DNA from: Rhabditophanes sp. KR3021
Lineage: Eukaryota; Nematoda; Chromadorea; Rhabditida; Alloionematidae
Direction: 5' to 3'
DNA: 64,000 nt
NCBI GenBank assembly: GCA_963281155.1
Contig: CAUJLY010000003.1
Span: 3,658,001 to 3,722,000 of the forward strand
In this document: one piece after another, positions 8,001 to 63,900 of the stretch
Layout: every line of letters starts with the position of its first letter
How positions within the stretch are numbered: the first letter of the stretch is position 1
The notes under the pieces: model-generated
Seen by the model: only the letters and a program-made list of their open reading frames with translations
What the model was told of the DNA's origin: nothing
Database searches by the model: none
Translations under genes and position numbers: made by a program

Positions 8001-11000
8001 AAAGCCTGACAATACTTCTAAAAATACCATGCATTTCAGCAATTTTTTCTCTACACAATTCAAATTCAGCCGCAGTGGCGAAACATTTGCACAGATGATA
8101 GCAAACTTGGACGCATAAATCTGAAACTTTTGAAGACATTCCAATCATATCGACACATTGACAGAATGTTTGATAAATAATCTAGAAACCATGAGTTTGA
8201 AAAGTTTGTTAACGTGAAAATATAGCATGTTTTTAATTTTTAAATCTTTGTATAAGTGTGCACTCCACCGCACTAAGACTTTGTACCTTTAATTATTAGC
8301 TAAAATCTATTACGTGTCATGGCCATATTTGAGATCAAATACAAATTTACTAATTAATTCTGTTTATTTTAGAGCTCAGTATCGCTTCATGTTAGATGTT
8401 TATTCAATCTATTATAAAAGATGGAGGTGAAAAAGGCTGTTACGTTTATTTGATGATCGACCCCAAGTTGTTCATAGCAACTGAACCAAAGATGGAGTCA
8501 AAAGGGAATTCACTACATTGGAGAAACGGAGATCTCTGACGGTAGAATGACAGCTCACAAAACATCCTCCAATCATACAATTGACTTGAAGATGTTGTTC
8601 GACAGAAAGAAGACTTTATAAAAGAAGTTGTTTACGATAAGTCGTTCGGCAAGAAGGGAATGAGTGTATTAAAGAAATGGTATCAGTCAAAAGAAGTGGC
8701 CGAAAACATTGGGAGTATCCTAATTGACTCTATTAGACCTCAACTTACTAACTCCGACTTCGGAAAGTCCCTAATATGCTCCCGAAAATAAGTGACTAGG
8801 TAGCTGATCTTATCTTAGGAGAATTTTTTGAAGCCAACTAGCTTATATCCTTATAAACTCTTAATTTTGATTGTCTTTTTAATAAAGTTAACTATTGCAC
8901 ATTTCTTTAAAGCCTTTAATTTTGAATGCCATGACTCACTTCCAAACCGCCATCTCTTCTTAACTGTTCGGCATTTAAAGGTGATGATTTTAATGTCCAG
9001 TAGCATAATTCGACAGCAGCGACCAGCAATTTTCCATCGCCAGTTGCAAACCAATTTTTTTCTTTAGATTCTAATTCGATTGTTTTGATTAATTGACCAT
9101 AGCCTACAATAGATTTGTACAATAAATAAAATTAAGCAATAATGAAAATGTGTTTGATTAATTTTTTTATTTTTGATCTTTACGAAGACACGTTTCTACA
9201 AAAGTGACCAAATTTATTAAATCTAAAGGGAAATGCATCTTATGAAAACATTAGACTTAGATCTATGAAAGGTTCTTTTTTAAATTCTTCTTAATGGAAA
9301 AATTCAAGCATCAGATCACCAACTGCGATCATGGCAGATGTAGCAAGCCTGACGTCTACTTGCTCTACCATGACAACGAATGTGCCGTTGATGATATCTC
9401 CGTTAATATGATGATCGATCTTAAGATGACTTCCACGTTTAATTTAATTAATACTTCGATTCCCCATTTTTTTAAATATTTGACTAACCTGAATATTTGT
9501 AAGGGCCAAGTTCTTCAACATGTCTTGAATATATGATGCTTTGGGCCTTTAGACACAAAACAATTCTTTGAATATCTGAATCAACACCAAATTCTCCATC
9601 GTTTCGAGTCATCGTTTCTATATGAGACATGACTAAAACATAAGCCTCCCCTAATTCTTGAAATTTGGCAGGGTCAACTTTTTCGTTCTTGTCAGGATGT
9701 AACATTAAAGCTAACCTTCTATACGCTTTTTTAATTTTATCAGTATCTTTGAAGTCAACTTCACTGGGTTTTAATCCAAGGATGGTTAAAGCTGCATCCA
9801 TAGACATCTCGGCAGGCTTTCTTTCTATTTCTTCATGCCAAGCAGCAAGACATGATTTTAAAAATTCAATTGGGTCTCTAATTGGGTAGTTGGGGAATCT
9901 CTTTGTGTCACACAAATGACGCAGATAATAGACATAGCAGAACAATTCTCCCTCTAATTGTGGATAAGCAATTGGTGTCAAAGGACAATAGCGGTAGAGG
10001 GATTTGATATTTGACTTCAATCGAAGAGTGTAATCACTAACGTGGAAAGAAACCTTTTCAATCATACTTCTCTTCATTTCTGAAATAAAAAATAAATTAG
10101 TATTAATATAATAAATGTTTTATATTCTAACACTTCTGCAAACTAAAGTGACTATATAAACTGTTCTTTGCACATTAAAAATATTAGCTTCAAGGTATTT
10201 TATGTGATATTATATTTAACACCTCATTTGATTTTGTGAACACTCATTTTCTCCGATCGTCTGGAGGCGGCTCACTCTATTCAAATGAGCGCTTCCCATT
10301 TTTAATCTAATAAAATAAAGACTTACCTGAGTTCCAGATGAGTTCCGGTGTTTCTTGTTCCCCTTAAAAATATTTATTATATCAATTATTGAAAATATTC
10401 TCTTACCTATGAAGACTTCAGCATACTTCTCTGCTCCGTACTCTTCAAGATAGTAGATGGCAGCTTCGGGTAGGATTGGCGACAAAATTGACCTTGCGAT
10501 TAATTCTGACTTACCCACAATACTTGTGAAGGCTTGTTTTGTATGAGTGTAATGGAGAAATTTGGCAACTGGCAAAATATTTGAGGAATTGTACATCATG
10601 ATAAAGAAAAATACTCCGGAGAGGTACAATCGTGAAATAAATGGATTATCTTGCATGACAAGTAGCAATAATGTAGCTACTCTGTGAACAATACTTGGAT
10701 CATATGTCAATAACAATTGTACAATTTGATACAACAAAATCGGTTCAGACAAAACTCTTTTAACGTTGGGTAGTGGTCTGATAATAGATCCATCTTCGTC
10801 TCTGGCAGGGAAAAATTGGCACATACTGATCATTGTATCCAAAACAATTTCACACAGTTGGGAAGGATTGTATAAAGCATTGGATGATGACTTATAAACT
10901 ACTGTCCACTTAAATTGAGCAACTTCTTCAAATGAAGCCCAGTCGGACATTCCATCGGCCCACACTTTTGATTTTCCAGTTATTTTGCCTTCCTTGAACA

Positions 11001-14000
11001 TTCTTTCCATTTGCTTGGCATTAAACTTTACATCACTTGAGCCTTCATAATTACTTACTGCCCATTCAATGGCACCAACATTCTCTTCGTCTTCTTCTGT
11101 CAATTTGGCACTTTCCAAAAGGTTTGATTGGTTTGTAGATGTTGCTCTGCTGGTATGCAAATGAGCAAGTGTAGCAAAATCAACGAATGTATATAGTAGA
11201 TCCGATCCAATTAAGTCGCGACAATTCTCCTTGTTCAATGCTAATTTACTCAATAGAAATACTAAGTGATCCCGTTCAGCCATTAATTTGGTATTTTGAA
11301 GCATTTCTACGATGGAACAGGAATCAGGGAATGGCCCAATCGTTTCGTGATGTCTTCCATAAGTTACTGCCATCGCCTTCAAACAATAACATTTCAATTC
11401 GCTTTTTTGAGCTAGCAAGAACTTGTGGTAAACATTATTGAAAAAGAAAGACGGTTCTTTGATGTCTGTTGCAGTGTTATCTTCTTCATTTAATAAAATT
11501 CGAAGGTAGTAATCACCAATTTTTATTTCTTCTTTCAATGAGTCATACTTGACATAGAACTCTGTGTGATTCCATGAGATTGGTACGTCATCTTTAACCT
11601 GTTCCATTTCCAACTCCATTAATCTCATTTCATTTTCAATTCCATTTTTAAATTCAGCTCTTGTTTTTTCATTCCAAATTAAATCTGATTTACTCCAATC
11701 ATTTTTGAACATATAAGCAAAGTACTTCCAATTAGCATCAGCCTTGATTTGTTGACGTCTCTTTCTTAATACAACAGGCTTTTCACGTTTCTTTTCGTCT
11801 TCCCGTCGATTTTTCAGTTCTTGAAGAATTGTCATTTTGTGCTGCAAGTTCCAATGCTGAAGAATTCCGTCCAATTTGGCTTCAATTTGAATTTGGACTT
11901 GATCTAATTGCTCACGAATATTTGATTTCTTTTGTTCGTTCGTTGCAATTTCCAAATTGTTTCGAATTGACAAGTAATCACCTTCCCTTACTGGAGCTTT
12001 TTCCTTTGAATAAAGGCCATCTAATAGACCTCTTGGGAGACAGCGTTTCATCAGATCCATCGCTTTTTCATTATTCGCTATCCACAAAGAAATCAATTGC
12101 CCTGATAATTGTCTATTAGTCAACACTCTAAGATCCCGACCATCAATCAGCAATGATAACTGTAAATGTTTTAAAAATGCTCCCTCCGTCAATGATAACA
12201 TTTGCATCCTGGAAAATATTTGAAAGTCTTATTCGTCTCTTTTCATTAGTTTTATATTTAGTTTAATGTTGGTTATTTGTATATTATAATATTTAGTACC
12301 AAATTTAAAAAGGCTGCATACAAACAGCTCTTTTAAACTTCGTTTTTTAAATTTGAATGATAGTCAAGACGAAGAAGCCGATTTTATTCCAAGTCAGTCT
12401 GTAGTTTTGTCTCAAGCAACTAGAATCAACACCTTGCAGAGAGAAGAATCGGTTTTGAGTGCTAAAGTGAAATCTCTTGCCTTCAAAGCCAAACCCGCAA
12501 ATATTGCTTTACCTACAAACCAGCAAACGTTTGATATTCTCTTCAACGCGATGTTTGACTACTCTCAAAAGAACTTTATCTTGCTCCAATTGATCTTTCA
12601 GACGAAGAAAAAACAGACTTGTTCAAAGTTTATACTGATTGCGGGGAAGCTTCGGATTGAAGCAGTGTGATTATTCAGTGTTTGTATTTGGACGAAAGAA
12701 TATGGTAAGCAACTACTTGATAGTAATTAAAAAATACTGGCAACCCAAATTAATTGATGGAGCTTTTAGCGGATATTTCGTATTCTCTAAATGAGAATGA
12801 AATGCTTAAGGAGTCTTTTGTTGATATTTTAATGTCTGCCAAATGTAAACTCTCTCCGTTTCCATTGCCTAATGATGATGGCACCGTCAAAGTCAAAGCT
12901 CAAATTGAGTTAGTCAACTACTAAAGGAGACGAACCATGCTGGTTTACTCGGTTTTGACTCAAAACTTCTTGCTGATGGGGGACATTAACTGAAAATATG
13001 AAGACGCCATACGATATGCTGGTGACTCATTTAACTTTAGAAACAGATGAGATACCCACAAATCTTTATTCAAGAGCTCTATGAAATTCGACTTCGTTTT
13101 TGACAAGAAGGAGAGACTCTTCAACAAGCTTGTGATTGCAGAAAAGAAGTCAATTGTAGCCATGAAGGAATACCCATGAAAGGCGATAGCAGAAAATGCC
13201 GAAGCTATTCTTATCAATGCACTTAGACGTCAACTCACAAACAGCGACTCTGGAAAACCCTCTCTAGACTTTGTATTATCCATGAACACCCAAATTAACT
13301 CAGATATTATTGTATGATTAATATCTTTTTTTGTAATTTATATGTTGTCATCGACTTTTATAATAAAGCTGTACCTTTCCGACATATCCTGATCACTTTC
13401 TTCAATGATAGCTCTCATTACCATTCCAGCTCCCTTGATAATAGTCATTGACGAATTGTGGAATAGTTTATAGAAGCTTTTGCCCCTCTTCGCAACCCCA
13501 ATCAACAGCATGTCAAATGATTCACCAGACGTTGTTTCACTGTATGGAGCACATAGAGCGTACGTCAAAAAGTCTAGCATTGAAGCAATTACCAAAAATC
13601 CTGTCTTTCTCTCTACGTGATTGACTACCAAATTAAGAAGATGCTCGATAAACTGTTTGCTAGACAATAAACTATTCTTATTTGATTGTTCGTACCTTAA
13701 TTCGTAATTCGCATGCATAGGTTGCATCAACGAGGTAAGCATTTCAACCACAACATAATCAACAGTATCATTTCCAAACTTCAGCATATCGACAACCAAT
13801 GATCCCAACTGAGTACGAATCATAGCAACATCCGTAAAAGATTGGAAACCTGCTTTTGATGAAAACAATCGACGCAGACATTGCATTTGAGCTTGGACTT
13901 TGACTGTAGAATTTATCTCATCTTTTGTATATTTCTCATTCAGGACAGTTTTAACACATTCAACGATAGTTTTGGTCTTACTGTCATTGAAAATTCCAGT

Positions 14001-15287
14001 AGTAGGGACGTGAGTAAAACCGTTGTATGGAATATTATAGTTAAATCGTTTGAACAAATCATATCTTGACAAATTAGCTGGAGGATTGACAATATGTTTC
14101 AATAGCTGCTGTTCACCTTCGTCATCAATTGTGCAATTGTTTGGAATTAACCTAACGGACTTCTCAAAGGCTCCACATGTCAAAACATGGATCTGCTGAT
14201 TTTTAGCAGATCTAGTTCCGTCAATAATTGAAGCTAGTACTAAATCACGTTCTGTTGATGAGTAGCTTCTGATTTGTCCACAATTGTATTGAATAGAAAA
14301 CATTTGAGGGTTCTTTAAATCTCTAATCAGACATACGATGTTTTTGAGTGGTCTTGCACAAATTACAGCATACGACGAAGGGTCTCTTTCAATCAGGCAT
14401 GTTTCAGACAAACAAAGTGTTCTTCTGGGAGGTCTTTCATGACGGGGAGTATGTTTTTCAACACTGAATTCAACAAAAGATGTAATTTGATCGTCTCTGC
14501 TACACAACCCTAATCTTGTTTTGTTAAAGATATCCAATGCAATGGGGTCTTTGGCAAGTTGGATATTCATGCAAATGTAATCCAGAGAATTTCTTCTGAC
14601 GTCAAGAATAAATTTGTCGCGATCACCAATTATAAAGCAATGGCGACGTCGTTGTTCACCCATTTCCAAAATCAAACCATTTGGATTATTTTCCAAATGA
14701 CTAATGTGCATGATGTCCATAAAGTCATACGAGGCGATGACTATCTTCCTATGTGAATCTAACCGTTCCACACCTGAAGGACAAACTCGTAACATCACAT
14801 CTACTGAATCATCAGCCCAGTTGTGCTTTTTACCAGTATAATGCTGAAATGGTTAATTATACGAAAAGTGATTTATTTATTTGTGACTTACTGTAATCGC
14901 AAATGACGGATTGTTAAATTTAGAATATTGTTTGAGCGCTTCCGTCACCACATTTTTTGCAAATTCAGATGAAAAGATCATGTTATCATTTTTTAACTTC
15001 TTTTTGACGGTAATAGTGAATTCATCAAATCTATTATCTTGACTGCTTTTCGTTCTTTTGATGTTTATAAATTCCTCGTAAAGCCACTGATTTGTGATTT
15101 CAAGAGAAGTTGGGTTGTATGTTGTAATTGCAAGATCTCCTACCGAAAAGATTCGTTTGTATCTAAAACAGGTTACATTTTGTTTGTTATCAATTATAAT
15201 TATTTAAACTCACTTTCCCTTCCATGAATGTTTTGTGACCAAAAAACATGTCAAGTCACGATTGCTAGCAGCGTAACTTGTCATCAT
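5028..15287 (-). CDS. rme-8: RME-8 / DnaJ homolog subfamily C member 13
   Basis: Nine exons on the minus strand, joined in one continuous frame (2271 aa): 15214-15287, 14892-15162, 13375-14843, 10407-12208, 10327-10362, 9489-10079, 8940-9103, 7463-8181 and 5028-6717. Seen: N-terminal PH-like start ([20 protein letters not shown]), a GYF_2-like stretch (WADGMSDWASFEE), a J domain with HPD (LMLHPDKNEK) near the middle, and the four family-specific IWN repeats (DLIWNEKTR, ELIWNSEM, YLIWDNATR, ELIWNDEVR). Known: RME-8 is an endosomal Hsc70 co-chaperone working with retromer/SNX and the WASH complex in cargo recycling. The start at 15285-15287 precedes the conserved NRDLTCFLVTKH. Three introns are 44-51 bp; five are 247-1166 bp and hold antisense elements. 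One exon is just 36 nt. Confidence 0.97.
6718..7462 (+). mobile_element. Family B element in RME-8 intron (element 2)
   Basis: A 745-bp intron with decayed coding on the strand opposite RME-8. An acidic segment at 6845-6940 (DEEEFTLTADFANEKEI) is followed by an open stretch at 6961-7149 and then by fragments matching other family B copies. HFSFALGKDAAFKA at about 7155-7200 matches 49340. The terminal block ERFKGQSTNCDHGKCSMPD...MMFDLKM at about 7265-7400 matches 9294 and 49780. Frame changes and stops separate the parts. AATAAA at about 7435 lies about 25 nt before the host splice donor at 7462. Confidence 0.7.
8182..8939 (+). mobile_element. Family A element in RME-8 intron (element 3)
   Basis: A 758-bp intron whose plus strand holds a family A copy. 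Its 5' part (8220-8310, GTATAAGTGTGCACTCCACCG) is nearly identical to the 5' part of the element in the ABCF3 intron on the opposite strand, and the match keeps the same 48-nt spacing from each host acceptor. Protein fragments include EDFIKEVVYDKSFGKKG, SKEVAENIGSILIDSI and PQLTNSDFGKS (about 8600-8775), interrupted by stops. The 3' end CTTAATTTTGATTGT...TTAATAAAG at about 8860-8887 also matches the ABCF3 copy. Confidence 0.78.
9104..9488 (+). mobile_element. Family B 3' fragment in RME-8 intron (element 4)
   Basis: A 385-bp intron, antisense to RME-8. The reading frame 9294-9450 encodes the family B C-terminal block (KFKHQITNCDHGRCSKPDVYLL...LKM) in its least damaged form in this window. The upstream part shares GACACGTTTCTACA (9187) with element 1. 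It is clearly shorter than elements 7 and 10, so it is either internally deleted or a non-autonomous form. Confidence 0.7.
10080..10326 (+). mobile_element. Short non-coding element in RME-8 intron (element 5)
   Basis: A 247-bp intron without coding potential. Its first ~130 bp on the plus strand match the start of the Dopey intron at 50318: ATTAGTAT, TTCTGCAAA, GACTATATAAACTGTTC and ATATTAGCTTC occur in the same order and at nearly the same spacing from the host acceptor (TTCTGC at offset 55 versus 54). The 3' end has AATAAA about 10 nt before the host donor. This looks like a small relative of the longer elements. Confidence 0.68.
12209..13374 (+). mobile_element. Divergent family A element in RME-8 intron (element 6)
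   Basis: A 1166-bp intron, antisense to RME-8. 12350-12670 is an open segment (DEEADFIPSQSVV, then INTLQREESVLSAKVKSL), followed by frame changes. The 3' half (about 13080-13275) carries FDKKERLFNKLVIAEKKSIV, AIAENAEAILINALRRQL and TNSDSGKPSL, recognisably the family A C-terminal layout (VFDKKE..., AENVESI-ID-, TNSDSGKP). The end ATAATAAAGCTGTAC runs directly into the host exon, so its complement is the GTACAG donor. It is the longest family A copy here. Confidence 0.68.
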
Positions 15288-27446: not shown

Positions 27447-28680
<1,234 letters not shown>

Positions 28681-39842: not shown

Positions 39843-39865
39843 TTCAACCAAAAAACAATTAAAGT

Positions 39866-40917: not shown

Positions 40918-41210
40918 ATTCCTACTAACTTTTTATATTATTGGCAGGAATAAAATTAAACTATCTATTATCGTAAAACAATTTGAATTCATATTTTTTA
41001 TTAATTATAAAAGACAGCTAAGAATAACATTAAACCATGTATTATCGGAAAAACAAAAATAATATAAAATATATTTTAGATCATTCTTGTTTTAAAATTT
41101 GTTAGTGTGATATAGTAGAATATAAAGGTTTACACATATCAATATATTTATAATAATTTGGAAAGAGCAGTCGTCTACCTAACGAAGTCTTTAGGTGAAC
41201 CTTGTTAAAA

Positions 41211-44200: not shown

Positions 44201-47200
44201 GAGCCGATCATCGTGCAAGGATGGGTTTGTGTAGGAATATGCAGCTCCAATGGCAACTCTTAAATTGCCCGTCAATTGATCAACAATGTGAACACAGTAT
44301 GTCTTTAAGGTTTTATCGAGGAAAGGTAGGATACTTTTTGTAAACTGGAGCCATCTTTCGTGTCTTTCAGGTTTTTTCTGCAAAGCTTTCAATAACACAC
44401 ACAAAAATACTTTTAATTCAACGAGACACTCATAATTGTTTTCTTTAGAATGATTCCTCCCAGGTGGTGTTTGGCATTGTTGGAAGCTGTATAAGGGAGT
44501 ACTTGTATACGCAGAAACACTATGTACTGGTTGTTCATCGTCACAAGTATTTTGCAAATTATTTCTTAATTCATATTCGAGGTTTATGAATGTAGCTGCA
44601 AAGTCCAGTAAAGCATCATGATATGCTTGAATGGCATAGACGAAGAACTCAGAATCAGCTGGTCCATCATTAAAATCTAGTACTTCAGCTGATAAAATAG
44701 CCGTTGGTTTGCCACTTTTATCATTTACTCCATTTTGGGATTCATCAGTTCTAACAGCAGCCAGCAAAAAAAGCTTCAAACAGCGTGATAACTTGCAGCG
44801 ATGTAAAATACTTTGCAATAGAGTAGCGAATGAATTCGACTTGGAATCTCGTAGCATATGTATCAGTTCTCTGGTCAGTTCGTTCAAAAAGTCTAATGCA
44901 GCTCTTTTGCATTTCCACGCATCTAATAAATCTGATTGAGTTACTTCGTTAATGGGTGAATTCAAGTAACAACTTCTAAGATAATAAAGAGCAATCGTAA
45001 TGAATAATTCTAGAAAGTAGTAGTCTCTTTTTTTGTTGGCATCGAATGCATTATTAATAGAGTGGTCTTTGTTATTTTCATCGTTGTGGATATTTGCCCA
45101 GAATTCTTGACCTTGAATGACTTTGATGTGACGTAAGAATAAGTCTAAGACTTGTGAAATTGTTCCAGATTCAGGAGTCAGTGAGGATGTTCCAAAAGAT
45201 ATCATACAAGTTACTATATGTCTTCCGAGCATAGTACTTCCTCTATTTGATTTCAGTAATTCCCTTAGAATTGCAAAAACTCTTTCCGTTCTCCCTAGAT
45301 CAACTTTCTTTCCACAATGGGAGTACAAAAGCATATGAGTGTGTTGCTCGTCAAACAATTGTTGTTTTTCGTCACCAGCAGCAGTTAAAGTTGATATTTC
45401 GGCAGGATTGAAATTCTTAACCTCAGCGTCTAATTTAAAGTTAAAATATTAATGTATAAAAGAAGAAGGGTATTTTATTTTTAATGTTCTTTTTCAAAGA
45501 AATACTCTACCGACAGTGGTGTAAGTCTTCGTACTTTCAAATTTGATTATTAGCTGAAGCTATTTACGTGTCATGGCAATATTTAATCAAATGTACTTTT
45601 ACTAGTTTATTTTAGTGCCTAAGGTTGCATTAAATTAGGGTGTTTATTACACTTCAATCATGCTGTTGACTTAAAGATCTTTTCGACAAGAAGGAAGATT
45701 TTATCAAAGAAATTGTCCGTGACAAGTCGTTTGGGAAGAATGGAGTTATTGTTCTAAACATGAAATGCCAGTCAAAGGAAATGCAGAGAATGTTGAGAGC
45801 ATCCCCATTGACGCTCTAACACCTCAACTTACCAACTCAGATAGTGGAAAACCATTGTTTGAAGAAGTCTACTGGATGTTTCAAGAAATGAATGATGACG
45901 TCGCTGATCTCATTCTAGGAGAGTTCTTCGAAGCCCATAATGATATTGAAAAAGTTGATTATTTAACACTTTTACAAACTTTTAAATGTAATTGCCCTCT
46001 TTAATAAACTTTATGAACGAACCTTGAGCCATATCGTAAATACTTTGTTGGAGAGAGTCTTGTCTCCTGTGACCTTTTCTGCATATACTTCCAGCTTTGG
46101 CACTGCTGATTGATATTTGATGCTTTAGAGCTGTCGCTTCTCTTCGCGAACTTTGGCACTTGCCATTTATGATAATCGAGTTACCTGGAGTAGACAGAAT
46201 ACCATTAGGAACCACCCCATAGTTTGGCTTGGGACTATAGAAAGCAGGTTGTTCATCAGCTTCCTTTAATCCATGCTTGAATAAGTCAATGATTTCTAAT
46301 TCATTGTTTCCAGATATTCCCATTTCCATCTCAACTTTTCGACACGTTTGATCTATTAGAAATTGCATGCAGTCCCAAATGTCTTGTTCTGAACTATCCA
46401 TGGAAACGTTGTCTAATGAATCTACATCGTCGTCTTCATCGAAATGCGGAATTTCACTTAAAGTTCTATTATATCTGATTTTGCCAGTTGGTGGTGTCTT
46501 GTCTTTAATTGTATCGTTGAATGTATTCACAGTAATTATGCTTGAAGTATAATTTGTTGTGAAGGCTTTTGAAACATCATACCCGTTTGAAAAGGGCATT
46601 TTCAACTTCTTCTTAGAATCATTTACCCACCTTTGAACCTTCTTATCTTGAAGATCTATAAAGCCATCATCCTTCGTTGCACTATTATTTACGCCTGGAA
46701 TCTTGCACACGTGATGTATTTCTTGCCCCGCGGTGGTTGTTTTTAGATTAACAACATTGATTTCATTCGGCATGCCAGGAATCTCATCACTTGACAACCT
46801 TGAAACTATGTCAACATAATGAATTGAGACACGGCTAGTTGATGGATTGAGAAGCATTTTAACGAGCATTTGCATAACTCTCTGCAGATCATTATGTTTA
46901 GCACAGTCCATTAACCACGAGGTAACAATATTTTTAAGCTGACTTCCGCCATTTGAGAGCGACTCATCGGCTAAAACACCTAGTAATACGAGATAAACAC
47001 GATTGAACTGTTTAATTGGTATGCTGCATGACAAGTCGGATGTTGAAATACTTCTATTTAGAGTCCATACATTTCTAAATTTCTTGGCTGCTCGTATGGA
47101 GGAAGCAATACACCGTGATGTCAAGTCGCAAACAATGGTATCTTCGGCTTCACTGCTGGCTTCATTTACTTTGAGAGAATGAAGAATTAACATCAACTTA

Positions 47201-50200: not shown

Positions 50201-52208
50201 CTGTTCCTTCTTCTAGACCTAACAATACGGCAGTGATAAATCCGGGGAGGGCAGGCGTCAAACGTTGACCCATGGGTAGCAAGAATGTTTCAAAGATTCC
50301 CAGCAATTCTGTCTTTACTTAAATTCAAATATATTAGTATCAATGTATAAATTTTTAGTATTTTTAATAGTTCTGCAAAATAAAAAGACTATATAAACTG
50401 TTCCTTAGTACTTCGGCATTAAAATATATTAGCTTCGAGGCATTGGATGTGTTATCATATTTAAGAGCTAATTTAATTTTTATTTTTTTCTGATAAGATA
50501 ATTAATCTGTTCACATTTCGTGCAATCAAACAAATGAGAAACCATTGCATGTAAATAAAGCTCAGCGGTGGTTTTAAAGATGAAATTAAAAGACAGATAG
50601 TATTGAATTTAAAGAAATATCTGCAAAACTATTCCATTTCTATACTCAATTATTTTCAAAACTATTGCAGTATAATATCCTTATTATTTAAAAAAATATC
50701 ATTCTAGTGCTTACCTTGAATTCCGCAATGATCCATTAGAGGAAATAAACCTACTGCAAATAAATACAATAACCGGGATAAAGTTTGTTCTCCAAGGATT
50801 GTGAAAACCATCTTGTATGTTTCTAATGCTTTTTTATGAACACCAGCTGGCAATGCTGGATGCAAGCATTTTGACAATTGCTTGGCAACAGTCACCGGTT
50901 TGGGGATGTCCTGAATATAGCAGATTATTATTTATTGTTTTATGAGTTTAAATTATGTTTACTATTAATTTTATTATGTATATATTTTGCAATGTTTTAA
51001 AATGTAAGCCATCGACTACTCTGGTTAAGATAATGTTACATCAAGATTTGCGTATAACATGCCTTAAATATGTTTGTGTCATTTCATTCTTATTCTAACG
51101 AGACTAATGTGTCTTTGTATCCTTATTATTAATCATACTATTTTGGTTAAATCACACCTAACCTGCTGGATCTATTTGCTAAAAAATAAGAAAACAAGAA
51201 AAGATGGTAGACATCTCGATGAGGCATCTTACAAAGAAACTGGAGTCGAGCTTGTAGTGAATACAAAAGCAATAACTTTTTGGGAGAAGGAAAATGGTAA
51301 GTAATATTAGTATTTATATTGTAATTCGTTGTCAGCCAATCCCGATCTTCAAAAAACCACTTCTCATAGTTTATCAAATGCCGATGGATCTATTTTATCT
51401 CCACTCAAATGGAGGAAAATGAAATAATTGTGCGTAGAGAAAAGGTGGCTATTTGTATGGGAACTATTGAGAAAGGCTTTTTGGAAGGTCAGAAGTTTGC
51501 CAAATTTGAAAAGAAAAAACAGGTTATTGTTCTAAGAAAGTTGACGGTGCAATGGTTAGGCGAGAACATGTTGTTAGCTCCTTGTGATTTATTAAAAAAG
51601 ACTGTCCAGACACAATTTGATCAACTAGAAATTGTTATTAGGAAGGAAGATGGTCTCAATACAAAACGATTCTCGGAGTGCATTTTAACTGAGTACTTTA
51701 GCAAGCAACAAATGTAGATCAATGTAAATGCATCATGGAGGAAGTAAGCATGCTCTTTCTTGCAAATGCCAAATTTTTTGGTAAACTGTTGGTTGAACAA
51801 ATATTTACACTCTAAGATGCATCATCACTAAACCTTAGTCATGCTTATCTTTGATTGCTTTTTAAATATATTTTTTATTTTTGTCTTTTTAATTTTTTGA
51901 AGTACTTTGAATTTGGCAGATTGCTGGAAAACTTTCAACAGTCCAGCCAAGGCAGAGATCAAGTCTGGCCAGTCCTTGGCTTTTTCAAATTGTCCCAATG
52001 CTTTCTCTACAGCAGAAACATAATTCCTGTACTTAGAACTTGATTGTAAGGCAGCTGCTTCGGCAGTTGAAGCGGCATCACCGCCTAGTAATGCTAAAAA
52101 CAAGTAATCATTTAGTTGGTAATCGTTTAGCAGGTAATTATTAATAAATAATCATTTAACAAGTAATTACTTAATAAATACTGAGGTAAATAACTTACTT
52201 GACGACAT
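41211..52208 (-). CDS. Dopey (DOP1) family protein
   Basis: Ten exons on the minus strand join in one continuous frame of 2560 aa: 52199-52208, 51906-52093, 50715-50910, 49973-50317, 47944-49029, 47816-47887, 46023-47777, 43059-45429, 41915-42910 and 41211-41874. Seen: the conserved N-terminal Dopey domain (SSKYRNYVSAVEKALGQFE, LSKCLHPALPAGVHKKALETY, GLEEGTEFYDRT, FYASLWEAVLGSPSVRLPA, VLRRDISLNRRLYQWLL) and a C-terminal helical end (FADYVRLYG...). Known: Dopey forms a complex with Mon2 and links kinesin-1/PI4P membranes in Golgi-endosome traffic. The first coding exon is only 10 nt (ATG TCG TCA A). Four introns (593, 943, 397, 995 bp) hold antisense elements; the others are 38-148 bp. Exon junctions were chosen for frame plus family alignment. 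Confidence 0.95.
45430..46022 (+). mobile_element. Family A element in Dopey intron (element 9)
   Basis: A 593-bp intron, antisense to Dopey. The 5' part (45510-45580: TAAGTCTTCGTAC, GATTATTAGCTGAAGCT, TTACGTGTCATGGCAATATT) matches element 3. An open stretch at 45765-46004 encodes the family A C-terminus in good condition (NAENVESIPIDALTPQLT, SGKPLFEEVYWMFQEM, LGEFFEAHN). Upstream fragments (DFIKEIVRDKSFGKNG at 45690-45760) are in another frame. AATAAA at 46003 lies about 15 nt before the host donor. Confidence 0.78.
49030..49972 (+). mobile_element. Family B element in Dopey intron (element 10)
   Basis: A 943-bp intron, antisense to Dopey. In order on the plus strand: LLRRSRPKVKVYMD (about 49250), TVYSRLVSHFSYALAEDDTFKAGIERM (about 49315-49400, split by no stop), and an open frame 49516-49845 with CPKEMHCTHCKMVFG (two CxxC-like pairs) and FDRKEFRWTRSRTIRPTNELAENLEF. 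Then comes the C-terminal ERFKYQI block, frame-shifted after 49805, ending MMFDLKM near 49900. TTTAATTTTAATAAATTTTTTG lies about 15-30 nt from the host donor. Best view of the family B order. Confidence 0.78.
50318..50714 (+). mobile_element. Short element in Dopey intron (element 11)
   Basis: A 397-bp intron without coding potential. Its first ~150 bp match element 5 of RME-8 block by block (ATTAGTAT, GTTCTGCAAA, GACTATATAAACTGTTCC, ATATTAGCTTCGAGGC, ATGTGTTATCATATTTAA). Both start at the host acceptor and are offset by one nucleotide only. The rest is AT-rich and unlike element 5. Confidence 0.66.
50911..51905 (+). mobile_element. Antisense element with intact ORF in Dopey intron (element 12)
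   Basis: A 995-bp intron, antisense to Dopey. Two open stretches on the plus strand: 51074-51304 (charged end KKTRKDGRHLDEASYKETG) and 51409-51717, 102 codons, MEENEIIVRREKVAICMGT...ECILTEYFSKQQM with no stop. A GTAAGT follows the first ORF at 51298, so the two might be exons of one gene, but I could not place an acceptor with confidence. No clear match to family A or B. The end TTTTAATTTTTTGAAGTAC lies at the host donor, similar to other element 3' ends. Confidence 0.5.
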
Positions 52209-56329: not shown

Positions 56330-56527
56330 AATTAACTCGAAAATAAGCACTCTTTATTGAAGTAAATAAATAAATTGAGGAACAAATACTTTTACACAAA
56401 CTAAATTAAATCTTTTATTGAAGTACATTTAATTTTAAAATAATTACATTAAGGCAAGGAAATGTTGAATATCACATTAAAATACAAAATTATATACAAG
56501 TATAAATTTTAAATAGTTAGTAAATGC

Positions 56528-57522
56528 TTAGAAATGAATGATATCAATATCATTCTTTGAGATAGGGTCAGTGGAATTGTACCAATCAGATAAGTCTTCC
56601 GCCTCAAAGCAGTTTGAACCAACGAAAATATTGTTTTTTTGGACGGATATGAAAGGGTGGTCTGTTCCTTTATCAGTAAGCTTGAATTGTTTGAGGATGG
56701 CTGTTTTTCCTTTAGCTTGCTTTAGATATGAGGATGTAACTTCAATATCAGACTGAACCCTAGCGTAGACTCCTTTTTTGTCCTCATCGATGAGCAACAG
56801 TTCCACGCAATCATCTCCAATTCTTTGAATGTCAAAAACAAGACCAATGACATCTAAAAATAATGAATAAATATATTTGCAAGACATGGTCATACCTTTG
56901 ACTTCATTTGTGCCTATGAATACTTCAGAGAGCTTGATGAAGGAGTGGTTGGTTGCATCAATTCGATTGTTGATCATATGCATTGGTGTATTTCCTGGAC
57001 TAATTGATCTTTTAGCTTGAATTGGTGTTGCCTTGGTTGTTTCAAGACCAACGCTGCTAACAGGAGTTTTTGCAGAATAGACTATTTGTTTCCCTCCGTT
57101 AGGAGTAGAGGAAACACTCGTGACTTCATTCTTCCGCCTAGGACACGCGAATTTTCGAGCAGCAACTGCAGATATAGCGGTGCTTCTTTGTGGAGTGATA
57201 AAATAATTCTCATCGACCTTTTGTCTTTTGGAGTAATCGTCCTCCGTGTCTGAAAATATGTAAAAAAGGAAATATGATGAGTATACTTACCAATAGATGA
57301 TTTAGAACGCTTAAGACTAATTAAATCAGCTTTGCTTTGTTCTTGCAAGGCACGGATGACATCTCTATTCTCATCGGTTTCAAGCTCTATTAAAATGTGT
57401 TCGTCAGCAACATTCACAGCCTGTTTTTGTCTTCTTAAAAGAGTTTCGTCAACGAAGATATCCTGATTAGCGCCATTTTTGAAGAAGGTCGAAACAAGAG
57501 AAGTTTTAGATAGTCGCGACAT
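56528..57522 (-). CDS. Unknown protein with possible OB-fold C-terminal half
   Basis: Three exons on the minus strand: 57291-57522, 56896-57249 and 56528-56853, introns 41-42 bp; 303 aa from MSRLSKTSL. An upstream in-frame ATG at 57600 would add 26 residues. The N-terminal half is charged and Ser/Thr-rich (VFVDETLLRRQKQA-like acidic and basic runs, YSKRQKVDENYF, PRRKNEVTSV), consistent with a nuclear, phosphorylated tail. The C-terminal ~130 residues show alternating beta-type segments (FIKLSEVFIGT, DVIGLVFDIQRIGDDCVELLLIDEDKKGVYARV, ISVQKNNIFVGSN) like an OB fold as in RPA-type proteins. I do not recognise the family; the OB idea rests on strand pattern only. Confidence 0.7.
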
Positions 57523-57919
57523 ACTTGAATTTAACAATGATTCCCAAGTTTTTACAATCAAAATGTAAATGACAAGTTTGTTTCGCTCCAAAGCTTTCAC
57601 TCCAAAAATTTTCGTGGCAAGAGCTGTTGTGAATGTGGTAAAATCGTGAAGTCTCTTTTAGATATAGTTTAAAGTGTATTAACTATTGTGTCAAACATAA
57701 GTATGTGTATATTCACAGTTGAAGCTTAATTGATATTATCAACTTTAATCGTGCCAATTTGTTTTGGAAAAGATTAGCATTTGATATGATATTTTATAGG
57801 CATGAGTTAATTTAGTTTAAGACTAATTATCAAGATAATGTTCTTGTTATTATCAAATAGCAACTTTTAAAAAATGGCATCTTTGCAAATTATTTCCGAC
57901 GCCTATTAATGATACCAAA
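57523..57919. promoter_or_regulatory. Divergent region between unknown gene and eL43
   Basis: About 400 bp of AT-rich sequence between a minus-strand start and the plus-strand ribosomal protein gene. No TATA box or clear motif is seen. Confidence 0.3.
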
Positions 57920-58292
57920 ATGTTAGGTTAAGCGCACAAAGAAAGTTGGAATCACTGGAAAGTATGGAGTCCGTTATGGAGCTTCATTGAGAAAACAAGT
58001 TAAGAAGATGGAAGTTACTCAGCATGCCAAGTACACATGTCTTTTCTGTGGAAAAGAAGCTATGAAGAGAACATGCGTAGGTTAGTATATAATTGTTTAT
58101 CTACATTTACTTCGATTAGTTAAAATATTATTAGTAACACTTGAAACTGTAGTAAATTTATATATTTTAGGAATCTGGAAATGCTCAAAATGCACTAGAA
58201 CCGTTGCCGGAGGAGCTTATGTTTACAGCACTACCACTGCTGCTACTATCATATTAACAATCAGACGCCTTCGCGAAACGAAGGAAAATTAA
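57920..58292 (+). CDS. rpl37a: Ribosomal protein eL43 (RPL37A)
   Basis: Main exons 57927-58080 and 58171-58292 with a 90-bp intron. Seen: [20 protein letters not shown], then a zinc ribbon CLFC...CSKC, then [15 protein letters not shown] and a basic C-terminal tail (RRLRETKEN), all family-typical. Known: eL43 is a small zinc-binding protein of the cytosolic large subunit. The start is uncertain: GTTAAGCGC follows a TTAG acceptor at 57923-57926, so the ATG must be in a tiny upstream exon. Candidates are the ATG at 57920 (too close for an intron) or an ATG at about 57875 followed by GC, which would make a GC-AG intron as in the TTBK gene. Confidence 0.9.
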
Positions 58293-58386
58293 TCATAATT
58301 ATAAATTAACTATGAGTATAAATTGATTGTACATATTTTGATTAATAAATTTATTAAATATTTTATTCAATTATTAAATGCAATCT

Positions 58387-59784
58387 TTATTCTAGCATAA
58401 ATTCCTCATCACTTGAACCTAATTCGTTAAAGTCGGGAAATTCGAATAAAGCAGTTTGCGGTTTGGCTTGAGCTTTAGCAGTCTTGGCTTCTTCTTGTCG
58501 TTTTCTTTCTCTATTCGCTTCTTCGGGATCCCAGGAAGCATCACTATCATTTCCATCGTTTGCTAAAGGCACAAAATCTTCAAACTCGACATCACTATCG
58601 TCCACGAATGGGGATTTATCTGGCACAATATTGACAACGGTTTGACATACTGGAGCCAAAAAATAAATAAGAATGTTGTCTTCCACTATTTTAAACTTGT
58701 CTTTCAAAATTAAAACCAAGGGAGATAAGGCTGTATCGTATGTCCAAATTAAAACTGGCCAGACAACTGTGTCCTTCAACAAGACTCCTATCTTAATTCC
58801 TGCCACTTTCGATAAGTTCCACAAAACACACGCTTGCTCAGCCAATACTACTTTCATTTTTTGAGTCATTGGTGAAATCCAGTATCCATATGCAACGTAT
58901 TTGACGCAATTTACACCCTTTCTGTATCGATCTTTAACAGGTTGTCCGATGTTGTTATCTAAATACGAAACTACACTTGGCCACCAACCAGCAAATAACC
59001 AGAAGTATAGAAATTGCTTTGATTTATTAGTAGCACTTGAGACAGGTTTACTAATGTAAGTTGTAAATGTAGACGAAAAATATCGTCCTATTGAGGCTCC
59101 CGTATTTTGAATATTCACTATGATGTTTCCAAAAAAAGCTTTGATTTTTTTTAGTTGGTTATGTGCAAAATCAGGAAAGCCTAAAACAAATATGAATATT
59201 AAATAAATACAAAAAAAAGTACCTTTCAAGAATTGGAATGAGCAGACGTAATAAATCGCAGCATAGATACGGCTCAAGGGATTGATAACACATTTGTCAA
59301 CAGATTTGACAAGAGCTTCTCTGATTCGACGAGAAGTTTTTCGATGAACCCAGACTGGATTAATAAGTAAAAGTAGCAATGCTATGTAAGCTGCCCAGCA
59401 AGAGTACTCCTTGTCACCTTCGTGAAGTTCATGAGCGGAGTATAAAAGAAGTAGCAATGCGAATGTTCTAAACAAACTTCTGAATGGCCAGAAGAAAACG
59501 TGCGTTATCACTGAGTTGTTGTCTGTAGGAGTAAACAGGATATCGAATGAAAGTATTGTTACTGCTGTAAATATTATAATTTGGTACTGGACTTGTGGTG
59601 GTACATAAAACACAGTTATCCTAAATATTTACCTTTACATTATCAATTATAGCCATTATTAAACTAACCAAAATAGGGCATTTGCCGCAAACAGGTAAAA
59701 TGTTGATAGTGAGCTTCGCCATTCAACAATGGCAAGAGTCTTCTCACATACCCATTTATATGAATTCTTTATAGTTGTCGTCAT
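58387..59784 (-). CDS. Multi-pass membrane protein with acidic tail, unknown
   Basis: Exons on the minus strand: 59669-59784, 59223-59620 and 58387-59180, 435 aa; the first intron is 48 bp. The 42-bp stretch 59181-59222 (GTAC...TTTTAG) has intron ends but is also open in frame, so it could be an intron or 14 extra hydrophobic residues. Seen: four to five hydrophobic segments in the first 150 residues (YQIIIFTAVTILSFDILF, FALLLLLYS, YIALLLLLINPVWV), a long middle with amphipathic helices, and an acidic, coiled C-terminus (DDSDVEFEDFVPLANDGNDSD, ANRERKRQEEAKTAKAQAK). No family recognised. Confidence 0.7.
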
Positions 59785-59954
59785 ATTAGTTTTCAAAGCA
59801 CATGCTATTTATCAATAAAAAACAAATTAAACGTTTATTGATGTTAAAGTACGAAAAAAAGTAAGATCAGACATACAATTGAAGGCGCGGCCAGGGTCAC
59901 GTTTTTTGGCATTAAACTCATATTTAGTTCAAAATACAAGTAGCCCACACGTAA

Positions 59955-60351
59955 TTAGTCATATTTCTCCTCAAATTTCTTCTTAGCGATCTTAATGTCT
60001 TGGTGAGCATGTAGTAATTCTTTTACACGACCATATTTCTTTGCATCTCTACCGATTAGGTAATGGATGTCTTCTAGTGTAATCTTTCCTTGCTTTCCTG
60101 TATTCATTGCAGCTAAAGAGATATCTCGAATATAATCATTGACCATGACTTCTAATAAATCAATCGTTTCATCAAAAGGTATCTAAAATGGTTGTAAAGA
60201 CAAATGAAATTTATTTACTCACCTTTGCATCGCCGAAACCATATAACATATTCGTTAATTCCTTACGAAAGTGTGTTTTACGATCTTCTGGTTTCGTATT
60301 TTTATCATCTTGTTCTTCATCAGAAAAGTTAAATAATGAATTGTCTTCCAT
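59955..60351 (-). CDS. taf13: TFIID subunit TAF13
   Basis: Two exons on the minus strand, 60223-60351 and 59955-60182 (40-bp intron); 118 aa. Seen: FRKELTNMLYGFGDAKIPFDETIDLLEVMVNDYI, then GKQGKITLEDIHYLIGRDAKKYGRVKELL, the histone-fold of TAF13 (its partner is TAF11) and the usual KKYxRVKELL end. Known: TAF13 belongs to TFIID and the SAGA-related core promoter machinery in the nucleus. Length is normal. The N-terminus is short and acidic (MEDNSLFNFSDEEQDD). Confidence 0.93.
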
Positions 60352-60904
60352 TTTAGTAAATAAAATAAAGTAGTCTAAAACTATGTAGACAAATATATAT
60401 TCGTTGAAGTAAGTCGCGGTCGATAAACAAGCGGCAACATATTACAATACTATTGTATACCAAACAATTATGAGTAAATGATGGAATGTAGATACAAGAG
60501 CTAATCAACATCCAATTTATAAAAAACAAGTGGTCATTAAATATTTTAAACAATTTAAATTGCAAACACCCTCATACTATTGCTCGATCAACTTGCAATT
60601 TCAATGCTTTAATATTTATTAATATGCAGGCTTGGTTTAAATATTATATATTTTTAAATATATTATAATTGTTTAGACATTTTTTCAAGTAATTGGATAT
60701 TTATACGTTCCGTTTTTAATTGCGAGATATCCTAAGAAGAATGTAAAATGTCAGAAGGAAATTGAGTCGCGGCCGAAAAACAAACGTAATTTGAGAGTGT
60801 CGAAAGTCTGTAAATGCTTATTTGTCAATTATGTTCCTGTTTAAAGAGTTTTTTTAATTCAATTAATTTTAAAATATTTTAGACTATCTGTTTAATTATT
60901 CACG
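60352..60904. promoter_or_regulatory. Divergent promoter region of TAF13 and ABCF3-like gene
   Basis: AT-rich, about 550 bp between divergent starts. A short TAAGTCGCGGTCG at about 60408-60422 and GAGTCGCGGCCG at 60764-60775 share a GTCGCGG core, the only GC-rich motif seen twice here; it may be a binding site. No coding feature. Confidence 0.35.
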
Positions 60905-63900
60905 ATGGCTCCAAAAGGCGGAATCACGTTTGATTTGAACAAAACGTTCAATGATTTTGAAGACGATCCCAATGAAGATTTCATTCGTATTCCTATTCCC
61001 GACAGATTTGTCGAATCTGATGTTCAACGTGCTGAACGCTTAAACGATAAAGTTAAAAATGATAGTATTGCTCCAATTCTCGAGCCCATATTTCCCTTGG
61101 ATTTTAAGCCAACTGTTGTTATTGAAGAAGTAACTGGGCGTCCAAACATTATTGTTGGTGATTTGTCCAAATCTGCAATCAGACAATATGTTTCTAACAT
61201 CGTTGGATCGAGACATTCCGAAATTGTCGACTATTTGATTGGTAATTTAGTGTTTTAAGGATTATGATTTATTTTTTAGACGTGTGTGTTGCAAATGTGG
61301 AGGATATTTCTGATTTCGAAGATGTCTCAAGTGCCATTAGTTTTGTTTTCAAGCAATTCGGATGTTCAGAAGAAGAAACAATCAAGCATTGCAGAGTTAT
61401 TATGTTTATGCTTCACGGAACTGAAGTACGTGGATCAGAAAGTACCACCCAATTGAATGCTTATCGTTTGAACATGACAGTTGATATGTCGACCAAAGCC
61501 ATGGTTGCAGATGGAAACGCGTTGTTATGGAAAAAATCTATTCGCGATAACAAACTTATTGACTTGACTAAGTTCCAAAGAAAGCAAGTTAATGAGAAAA
61601 TTATTCCCGTTGAAAATGCTGCCAAGAAGGCTAGAGATTCTATTCGTGCTATGGCAACACAGAGATTTAGTAAACGTGATGCAAAAGGAAATCCATCTGT
61701 GGAAAATGCTACTGACATCAAGATTGAAGGTATTGACATCTCATACGGAACAAAGCACATTCTTCACAACGCCGAGTTTTCACTTGTCTTTGGCAGAAAG
61801 TATGGTCTCGTAGGTGCGTTTTTCAACAAAACAATCAAAATTAAGGTTTTAAAAAATGTGAAATGGTTGACTTTGTTGAACAATACAACCAAAATGAGAA
61901 ATAATTAACGTTTTTGATATGATTAGCTACCTTATCACCCATTTCCGGAAACATATGATGGACTTCTTCGAATGACGGCTTCCCCGAGCCGGTCAGTTGT
62001 GGTATTAGAACGTCAATAAGGATACTCTCAACGTTTTCGGCTACTTCTTTTGAGTGACACTTCATCTTTAATACAATGATTCCCGTATCCCCAAATGACT
62101 TATCATAGGTAACTTCTTTGATAAAGTTTTCCTTTCGGTTGAACCAAAGCCTTGACACATAATCGCTTCTTTTCCGCTCAAACGACGTTTGCAAAGTTTT
62201 GCAGATGCGATGTTGCTCAAATGCTGTGCAGATCGCTTCTTGGTTCCCAAAGAAGTTTCACCAAAGTAATGTTTCTTTAACTCGTTGTAGAACATGTAGA
62301 TTTAGGATTCACTAAGTCCTTCTAGGGGTGGCATATTCAAAGCATTTTTGATCCTTTTAACGTTCAAGACGATATCAAAGAAACATCTAGTAATAGATTA
62401 TGTAATGCAATAATTGAAACTGCAGAGTAGCAGTAGTCAATCCATTCTTGGCATGTTTTAAGACATGACTATTCCCAAGTAAGAACGACGCCAAATCACA
62501 TACTGTTAAGTCAGCCATAGTTTTGAGATCATCAAGAGATGGTTTCCACATATCTTTAGTCTTTTCAAAGACTCTGTTCTTACCAAGTTTTCTCTCAAAA
62601 ACAAGAACATGATATCCTTTAGATGAAAGATTCGTTCGTAGTTTCTATACTTTCTGAAAGCTTGTTGTGGTAGGACATGGTACTTCAGGAGATTTTAGCC
62701 AATAATTAAAGGTACAAAGCTTAGTGCGGTGGAGTTTACACTTATACAAAAAATTTAAAACATGCTATCTTTTATCTTAATATTATAATTTACAAAATGG
62801 TCTTTTAGGAAGAAATGGAATCGGTAAGTGTAGTATGATGTAATTTTAAAATGCAACATATATTTTAGGAAAGACTACTCTTTTGAAAATGATTTCATCC
62901 AAACAATTGGTAATCCCTTCAAATATTTCCATGTTGTCTGTCGAACAAGAAGTCGAAGGAGATGATACACGAGTCATTGACGCTGTACTTGCTTCTGATG
63001 TAAAACGTCAAGGTTTACTAGATGAAGAAGCTTTCATAAATGAGCTCTTGAATAACCCCGATGATAATGTTACGGAAGAAGACAAGGTCAAATTGTCAGA
63101 AAGGTTAAACTATGTCTATTCTGAATTAGAACAGATTGGATCTGATCAAGCACCCAAGGAAGCTGCTTCTATTTTGTTTGGTCTTGGCTTCACTCCTGAA
63201 GAACAACTAAGACCCACGAGCGAATACAGTGGTGGTTGGAGAATGAGGATAGCTCTTGGTAAGTGTTAGGGGGTGTTATAAAGCTTCAAAAACTTCAGAA
63301 TATTCATGGCAGTTGCCTATACACCACAAAGGGACTAAAAAATTAAGAAAAAACACAGTACTTTATAAATAAGGTGTTACACGTAGCTAAATATAAGATA
63401 GTTGGTTTTTGCAAGCCCTCTAGAATTGAAAGCTTCATTCATGACCGTTGCCTGTAAACCAAAGAGGGACTAAGAACATTCAGACACAATACTTTATAAA
63501 TAAGATATTACACGTAACTAAATATGAGATAGTAGTTTGTGAAGTTATCTAGAGTTGAAAGCTTCATTGAAATGGCTCGATTAGGCAAACCTTGTTTGCT
63601 GGGAGGTTTGTAATGAAAGAGCGCCTTCATCAGCAGTTTTATATAGAAGTATTTTGTTACCAAAGGAAAAGCGCCGAAAGGAACAGAAAAATATGATATG
63701 GTCTGCGAAAAATAGTAATCAAATCCAACATAAAAACATTTTATTTAGCAATAATTCATACTAATTGTTTTGTCTAATTTCAGCCAGAGCATTGTTTGTC
63801 AAGCCGCAACTACTTCTTCTCGATGAACCTTCGAATCATTTAGGTATGTTAAAAGAGTTTTAAAGTTTCGACAATATTCCTTTAGATTTCCGTGCCATCT

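What the first reader, a model, noticed from the sequence alone, without database searches (positions are those of the whole stretch)
8182..62808. Element 5' ends coincide with host splice acceptors
Elements 3 (RME-8) and 13 (ABCF3), in unrelated genes on opposite strands, share a 5' block with the same 48-nt distance between the acceptor CTA(G/A) and the TAGCATG match. Element 9 (Dopey) keeps it within 4 nt. Elements 5 and 11 match from the first bases, TTCTGC at 55 versus 54 nt from the acceptor. Insertion into pre-existing introns would give random distances. So the element boundary appears to be the splice site, as in introner elements.
Basis: partly seen in the sequence, partly recalled or inferred. 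Interest (0 to 1): 0.95.

Follow-up and report, generated by a model that had tools for sequence, protein, structure and literature searches.

The report
Roundworm introns that are selfish genes
In a roundworm genome (matching Rhabditophanes diutinus), dozens of genes are interrupted by predicted introns that are, nearly end to end, copies of one mobile-element family whose fuller relatives encode a predicted DNA-cutting enzyme of the GIY-YIG type, which likely inserts them into exons, so that new introns would arise as a by-product of its spread.

Summary
A profile of the element's 5' block, tested on loci not used to build it, has a host acceptor YAG within 3 nt of its end in 14 of 22 matches (background 0.20, p=1e-5). 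The top-ranked donor lies near an element motif in 26 of 49 copies (background 0.10). Flanks are exons of genes on the opposite strand (40 antisense, 1 sense, 15 ties); joining them restores conserved proteins (Pfam match above cut-off across the join in 11 of 20; plus ARPC4). So the intron is the element: an introner. New here: related copies carry, antisense to the host, GIY-YIG nuclease ORFs under purifying selection (median dN/dS 0.32); the fullest read, L047, has two such domains in a 2.0-kb intron. Targets share TGG...AG|G. The assembly matches Rhabditophanes diutinus KR3021; family A was found 0 of 44 times on the X-syntenic chromosome, though three relatives lie there. Inferred: that the nuclease drives insertion, and splicing in vivo. 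Closest known: introners, and mirusvirus 'shintrons'.

The parts
8182..8939 (+). Element 3: 758-nt predicted intron of the RME-8 gene (host on -), filled by a family A element antisense to host
   Evidence: donor GTGAGTCATGG, acceptor GGTTTCTAG, phase 0; not among the joins sent to Pfam
8188..8421 (+). conserved 5' block of family A (model R1 match, 155 bits); holds an element-sense ACTAAT...TTTATTTTAG acceptor-like site
8435..8770 (+). decayed remnant of the GIY-YIG C-terminal domain (54% identity to the L011 ORF, 3 stops)
61814..62808 (-). Element 13: 995-nt predicted intron of the ABCF3 gene (host on +), element antisense; join reads KYGLV-G-RNGIGK
   Evidence: ABC_tran match across the join is below its cut-off
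61913..62149 (-). GIY-YIG C-terminal remnant in element 13 (70% identity over query 55-135, open frame 138 aa)
45430..46022 (+). Element 9: predicted intron of the Dopey gene (host on -); donor not settled between 46022 (element-like end, third-ranked) and 46184 (best coding score)
   Evidence: DOP1 domain match lies downstream of the join
45774..45947 (+). GIY-YIG C-terminal remnant in element 9 (78% identity)
10080..10326 (+). Element 5 (type C, 247 nt): RME-8 intron, element antisense, TTCTGC 55 nt from acceptor
   Evidence: acceptor is the resolver's third-ranked solution, donor at 10326 read by eye beside a 36-nt exon that the resolver skipped
50318..50714 (+). Element 11 (type C relative): predicted intron in a - strand gene, TTCTGC 54 nt from acceptor
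   Evidence: resolver only
6718..7462 (+). type B relative in an RME-8 intron (745 nt), antisense
   Evidence: resolver only
9104..9488 (+). type B relative in an RME-8 intron (385 nt), antisense; donor end GTTAGTCAAATATTTAAAAAAATGGGG resembles family A donors
   Evidence: second-ranked solution
12997..13323 (+). further GIY-YIG C-terminal remnant (40% identity, 3 stops)
   Evidence: intron not resolved

Best explanation
These predicted introns are, nearly end to end, copies of a mobile element whose fuller relatives encode predicted GIY-YIG nuclease domains; the nuclease likely cuts exons at sites resembling WTGGANNTNCAG|G, and the element is likely copied in antisense to the gene with a short repeat of the target, so that a GT at one element end and the AG at the other would act as splice sites and the mRNA would stay intact. 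Shown from sequence: shared ends at the splice sites, antisense orientation, seamless host proteins after joining where Pfam can judge, the target motif, exon-end/intron-end similarity, GIY-YIG catalytic residues, purifying selection on the ORF. Inferred: that the nuclease performs the insertion (by break repair, with truncated copies moved in trans), that the repeat is a true target-site duplication of about 8-12 bp rather than homology used in repair, and that the introns are spliced in the animal.
For: Ends at splice sites: acceptor; donor 26 of 49 vs 0.10 background, p=1.5e-13 (the motif strings were written after looking). Seamless: Pfam match above cut-off spanning the join in 11 of 20 joined host proteins (RACK1-like WD40 39/39 positions, class I tRNA synthetase, FAD-binding, aldo-keto reductase, kinase, CD36, ANF receptor, ankyrin, GPCR, LYAR finger 28/28, VPS41 161/161), one borderline (L045), four below cut-off (L032, L012, L066, ABCF3); ARPC4 139/139 positions across the intron that holds a 289-aa ORF. 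Orientation 40 anti, 1 sense, 15 ties. Target: TGG at exon -13..-8 in 16 of 25 vs 6 of 64 short introns, p=4e-7; AG|G 12 of 25 vs 1 of 64, p=2e-7 (TGG was noticed in these same 25). Repeat: exon-end vs intron-end matches at -3..-7, 63 vs 46.5 permuted, p=0.0004; mean run 3.24 vs 2.91, p=0.015; -3..-8, 74 vs 54.1, p=0.0005; other side, p=0.50. Nuclease: L047 509-aa frame, GIY-YIG 25.4 bits over cut-off 22.6, two stretches; 8 of 8 aligned domains match GIY-YIG at E<=1; PDB profile hits are two GIY-YIG proteins (E 0.002) and I-TevI (0.49). Selection: median dN/dS 0.318 in 78 pairs vs 0.757 and 1.106 in shifted frames.
Against: No RNA reads were available; splicing is predicted from coding continuity. 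Five of 22 held-out matches lack a YAG near the end; 23 of 49 top-ranked donors lack the element motif, and about 5 of the 26 that have it are expected by chance. The repeat is uneven: its excess sits at -3 and -6, with none at -4 (7 vs 8.2) and little at -7; L059, L012, L024 and L032 show little beyond AG, and 10 of 25 exon ends are not AG. L047, the one copy read with both domains open, matches family A by protein (40%) but not by the family A 5'-block profile. 22 of 54 domain copies carry stops. Single-sequence searches are weak: L011 against the PDB gave only unrelated hits, and most Pfam GIY-YIG scores seen are below cut-off. No assay links the nuclease to insertion.
Confidence: 0.75

Rival explanations
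1. Introner family moved by another enzyme (a DNA transposase or a reverse transcriptase supplied in trans), with the GIY-YIG ORF as a partner or passenger.
For: Known introner families are mostly consistent with DNA transposition (PMC9860276, abstract and part of section 4); Penelope-like elements pair GIY-YIG with RT (recalled; PMC3846280 listing only); many copies here lack a full ORF.
Against: The ORF is under constraint; no RT or transposase domain in the ORFs scanned, but the genome was not searched for one that shares the element ends.
Confidence: 0.25
2. Ordinary transposons inserted into pre-existing introns close to the acceptor.
For: Some matches (5 of 22 held out) have no clean acceptor at the end.
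Against: Near-fixed acceptor distance, donor near element sequence, a target motif in the exon itself, strong antisense bias.
Confidence: 0.03
3. The acceptor-side similarity reflects microhomology: repair of a break copies the element starting from a short match (ATGGA...AG) between target and element end, with no staggered-cut duplication.
For: The element's own terminus reads ATGGATTTCAG and the targets read TGGA...AG; the donor side is variable by several nt; the repeat signal is uneven; a 97.7% patch over 828 bp between L028 and L039 ends abruptly, as in template switching.
Against: Copy-by-copy covariation at -3..-8 fits a copied target better.
Confidence: 0.4
4. Descendants of viral spliceosomal homing introns (mirusvirus shintrons).
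For: Same combination of spliceosomal intron and GIY-YIG gene (PMC12768974, passages).
Against: No relative of the L011 domain in viral contigs at a sensitivity that finds close relatives only; the copies are dispersed over unrelated genes.
Confidence: 0.07

Closest known systems
Introner elements (Micromonas, Aureococcus, fungi, others)
   Same: many similar introns in unrelated genes, similarity reaching the splice sites, insertion into exons usually without changing mRNA length, splice sites partly from the target (PMC9860276: abstract, section 4 part 1 and passages)
   Different: described there as evolved from non-autonomous transposable elements, most consistent with DNA transposition; here relatives carry their own nuclease gene, and the host is a free-living nematode; the held text of that paper has no 'nematod' or 'endonuclease'. 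Inverted repeats were not searched for systematically here
Shintrons (spliceosomal homing introns) of mirusviruses
   Same: spliceosomal introns that carry GIY-YIG or other homing-type nucleases (PMC12768974, passages)
   Different: those lie mostly in viral morphogenesis genes with gene specificity; these are in an animal's chromosomes, antisense, in unrelated genes, with two GIY-YIG domains in the fullest ORF
Penelope-like retroelements
   Same: GIY-YIG endonuclease with a nearby zinc finger (recalled; PMC3846280 seen in listing only)
   Different: no reverse transcriptase domain in the ORFs scanned here
LEM-3/ANKLE1-type GIY-YIG nucleases
   Same: weak Pfam similarity (LEM-3_GIY-YIG, 2 of 8 members, best E 0.0049)
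   Different: 13.5 bits against a cut-off of 27 in the member shown; dispersed in introns rather than a single host gene

Membership tests
Introner elements | Similar introns in non-homologous genes | tested here: met
Introner elements | Similarity extends to near both splice sites | tested here: met
   acceptor: 40 of 58 within 3 nt; donor: 26 of 49, not shown for the other 23
Introner elements | Insertion into exon without change of the coding sequence | tested here: met
   11 of 20 joins spanned above cut-off; ARPC4; empty sites in relatives not available
Introner elements | TSD and/or TIR (present in some families) | tested here: inconclusive
   TSD-like covariation p=0.0004-0.0005 but uneven by position; TIRs not tested systematically
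Introner elements | Spliced from RNA | not testable with these tools
   no reads held
Shintrons | Spliceosomal-type boundaries and an encoded homing-type nuclease | tested here: met
   GT/AG ends by prediction; nuclease domains; join in ARPC4
Shintrons | Preference for particular target genes | tested here: not met
   unrelated host genes
Penelope-like elements | Reverse transcriptase | tested here: not met
   no RT domain in the ORFs of L010, L011, L020, L027, L028, L047, L048, L049 that were scanned
Group I/II introns | Ribozyme core | tested here: not met
   no Rfam family at gathering score in the window; other loci not scanned

The most novel reading that the evidence does not exclude
The first self-encoded introner: a spliceosomal intron of an animal that is itself a selfish gene, carrying a tandem GIY-YIG nuclease that cuts exons at AG|G sites and so makes new introns in the germ line, largely sparing the X-derived chromosome.
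Probability: 0.55. Interest if true: 0.95.

Novelty: new variant of a known kind. Interest (0 to 1): 0.88.

Why it matters
Where new introns come from is an old open question, and PMC9860276 describes introners as evolved from non-autonomous elements. A family in a nematode that seems to carry its own nuclease, with a readable target motif and a copy with an open tandem-domain frame, makes intron birth testable in vitro and in an animal. It would also show in a cellular genome the coupling of homing-type nucleases and spliceosomal introns that PMC12768974 reported from viruses.

Tried and rejected
Rejected: insertion into old introns (target motif in the exon, seamless joins); group I/II introns in the window; close viral relatives. 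Led nowhere: the L047 frame against 5.8 billion proteins gave no hit at E<=0.001; the domain alignment found two proteins at E<=0.01, both labelled Rhabditophanes sp. KR3021; L011 alone against the PDB gave three unrelated weak hits. My first boundary test drifted into the exon and is given only as a result against. One search's control set was too strict (2 introns) and was replaced (97 introns, of which the 64 up to 60 nt were used); these controls come from my own coding scan and may hold false ones. The 25 resolved introns were picked partly because an element-like motif lies at the donor, not for exon/intron similarity. Dropped as duplicates: L042 from the 25; L042 and L014 (where L057 gave no solution); L014, L019 and L042. 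still hold the pairs L013/L014 and L026/L042. The pairs in the dN/dS count are not independent and include one at 1.64 (L054/L055).

Literature: I saw listings (titles and starts of abstracts) of 'introner'+'GIY-YIG' (3 papers), intron gain terms (34, 25 of 186 listed), 'GIY-YIG'+'nematode'+'intron gain', 'homing endonuclease'+'spliceosomal intron'+'mobile' (75, 20 of 49 listed), 'Rhabditophanes'+'intron', 'introner'+'nematode' (86, 15 of 16 listed), 'shintron', GIY-YIG/Penelope terms (88, 15 of 338), 'Rhabditophanes'+'transposable element' (90, 10). None of these listings announced such elements in a cellular genome; opened in part were PMC12768974, PMC9860276, PMC9169325 (passages; no 'Rhabditophanes') and PMC10676810. 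Subscription papers and most preprints are not covered.
Full report
What was checked. The finding says that repeat elements in introns begin at the host's splice acceptor. In the window this holds: elements 3 (RME-8, host on -) and 13 (ABCF3, host on +) share a 5' block at the same 48-nt spacing, and elements 5 and 11 at 55 and 54 nt. Element 9 (Dopey) belongs to the same family, with a spacing 7-8 nt shorter by my alignment. Host gene names are mine from the translations, from recalled orthologues, supported by Pfam where stated.

Genome. The window is G000:C3:3658001-3722000 of a 44.85-Mb, six-contig assembly. It has 72 matches to the cuticle-collagen domain PF01484 (a nematode family, recalled), which rings in 0 of 14 control genomes. 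Contig sizes (11.2, 9.3, 7.9, 7.5, 6.6, 2.4 Mb) and total match the published Rhabditophanes diutinus KR3021 assembly: 44.8 Mb in six scaffolds of 11.2, 9.3, 7.8, 7.5, 6.5 and 2.3 Mb (PMC10676810, passages). The two database relatives of the encoded domain are labelled Rhabditophanes sp. KR3021. The identification is an inference from matching figures, but a firm one.

Copies. Element 3 as DNA gives 51 matches (40 of 93 candidates scored); the GIY-YIG C-terminal domain gives 151 matches (150 of 661 candidates scored); a 28-base pattern from the 5' block with up to 3 mismatches gives 44 matches, 0 for the reversed control. Counts are lower bounds. I fetched 38 loci for, 20 of the pattern places not yet held, and 5 others.

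Acceptor side. Aligned 5' blocks start with a common stretch that reads, in host sense, about TTTTAATTTACAAAATGGATTTCAG|. A profile from 27 copies was run on 20 loci not used for it. Of 22 matches, 14 have a YAG ending within 3 nt of the predicted end (background 0.20, p=1.2e-5) and 17 within -14..+3 (background 0.43, p=0.001); the 36 matches in the other loci, mostly training copies, give 26 and 30.

Donor side. A resolver using only codon scores and simple splice-site scores chose donors over about 2.4 kb. In 26 of 49 copies the top donor has an element 3' motif within 60 nt, against 0.10 for other GTs of the same loci, p=1.5e-13; the motifs were written down after looking at the data, and some of the 26 will be chance. 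Resolved introns start as GT, a few variable bases, then for example TTTATTAAACATAACAATCAAAATTAAG. In 23 of 49 the test failed; for ABCF3, L024, L030, L032, L034 and L066 among these I took, after inspection, a donor near element sequence.

Introns in real genes. Of 26 joined host proteins (25 resolved introns and Dopey) I sent 20 to Pfam. A single match above the curated cut-off spans the join in 11: L065 WD40 (39 of 39 positions, RACK1-like), L069 class I tRNA synthetase, L056 FAD-binding (SDHA-like), L026 aldo-keto reductase, L052 kinase, L017 CD36, L060 ANF receptor, L023 ankyrin, L016 GPCR, L039 LYAR finger (28 of 28), L033 VPS41 (161 of 161). L045 is borderline; L032, L012, L066 and ABCF3 span below cut-off; L055, L024, L020 and Dopey do not span. 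L055 keeps the collagen repeat in register by eye. Two further introns with long ORFs: L049 lies in ARPC4 (1-139 to 7-145) and L047 in a ryanodine-receptor-like gene, where the MIR match reaches only 2-3 residues past the join. Phases: 16 of 26 phase 1, 9 phase 0, 1 phase 2.

Orientation. Scoring both strands of the 5' flank without assumption: 40 antisense, 1 sense (L050), 15 ties, of 56.

Target and repeat. In 25 resolved introns the upstream exon end reads roughly WTGGANNTNCAG followed by G. TGG at -13..-8 occurs in 16 of 25 against 6 of 64 short introns (p=4e-7; noticed in these same 25); AG|G in 12 of 25 against 1 of 64 (p=2e-7). The last bases of the intron resemble the last bases of the same gene's upstream exon: at -3..-7, 63 matches against 46.5 when pairs are permuted, p=0.0004 (window set in the script before its output, after I had looked at pairs by eye), mean run 3.24 against 2.91, p=0.015; -3..-8, 74 against 54.1, p=0.0005; -9..-14, p=0.24; other side of the junction, p=0.50; per intron 2.96 of 6 against 1.66 in controls. 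The excess sits at -3 (14 vs 8.3) and -6 (18 vs 9.4), with none at -4. This is what an old, decayed target duplication could look like, or homology used in repair; some copies show little.

What is encoded. In element sense, antisense to the host, L047 has an open 509-aa stop-to-stop frame with two GIY-YIG domains and a C2H2-like finger between them (E 0.014, below cut-off) (Pfam GIY-YIG 25.4 bits against cut-off 22.6, two stretches). It is a relative, not a close copy, of family A: 40% protein identity, no 5'-block profile match. Family A copies hold both domains in pieces (L027, L043). Eight domain sequences align with invariant Tyr, Gly, Arg and His and a shared Glu and Asn; each matches GIY-YIG in Pfam at E<=1. 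The profile finds solved GIY-YIG proteins (E 0.002) and, weakly, I-TevI (0.49). Across copies the catalytic residues are held in 22 of 23 and 19 of 29 (the two Tyr), 26 of 30 (Arg), 26 of 30 (His), 42 of 52 (Glu) and 43 of 50 (Asn); 8 of the 16 copies that cover all six have all six. Over 78 pairs with dS below 0.9, median dN/dS is 0.318, against 0.757 and 1.106 in the two shifted frames. 22 of 54 copies carry a stop in the aligned part.

Activity. L028 and L039, at different places with no match between the loci outside the elements, are 97.7% identical over 828 bp and then fall to about 45%, which suggests recent copying or conversion between elements.

Mechanism. Commitment: the nuclease cuts exons at the TGG...AG|G site, and the break is repaired by copying the element in with a short repeat of the target, so the GT at one element end and the AG at the other give an intron whose removal restores the mRNA. 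Splicing, cutting and joining are inferred. Truncated copies would be moved in trans.

Place among known things. By the features tested it is an introner family. It works like the shintrons of mirusviruses, an association their authors call not observed before for spliceosomal introns (PMC12768974, passages), but lacks their gene specificity. It differs from the introners of PMC9860276 (abstract, section 4 part 1 and passages) in having relatives with their own nuclease gene. I rate it a new variant of a known kind, with the self-encoded introner as the bold reading.

Noticed in passing
G000 contig C6 (11.2 Mb) vs C1-C5: Family A is missing from C6: 0 of 44, 0 of 51, 0 of 46 N-terminal matches, lists that overlap; against 18 of 72 cuticle-collagen matches on C6. 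The broader protein search does list three on C6. PMC10676810 reports that R. diutinus Chr6 is syntenic to the S. ratti X; that C6 is Chr6 is inferred from its size and number. Germ-line silencing of X or past selection in males are possible causes.
   Followed up: partly
5' block, e.g. window 8188-8421: The conserved block holds an element-sense ACTAAT...TTTATTTTAG acceptor-like site upstream of a conserved ATGGAAGA, so the element's own gene may be spliced on the other strand.
   Followed up: partly
L028 and L039: 828-bp patch of 97.7% identity between elements at different places that ends abruptly: gene conversion or template switching.
   Followed up: partly
L054 and L055: Elements 93% identical over 441 bp in two collagen-like genes about 9 kb apart, with introns of different phase: perhaps a local hop.
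   Followed up: no
L048 881-2407: A second 509-aa open frame with one GIY-YIG match (20.8 bits, below cut-off 22.6); another frame nearby looks to me like a LINE endonuclease; intron status not resolved.
   Followed up: no
window 63302-63568: Two direct copies (81%) about 130 bp apart in a later ABCF3 intron.
   Followed up: no
window 41050-41093: 44-bp palindrome, 86% complementary.
   Followed up: no
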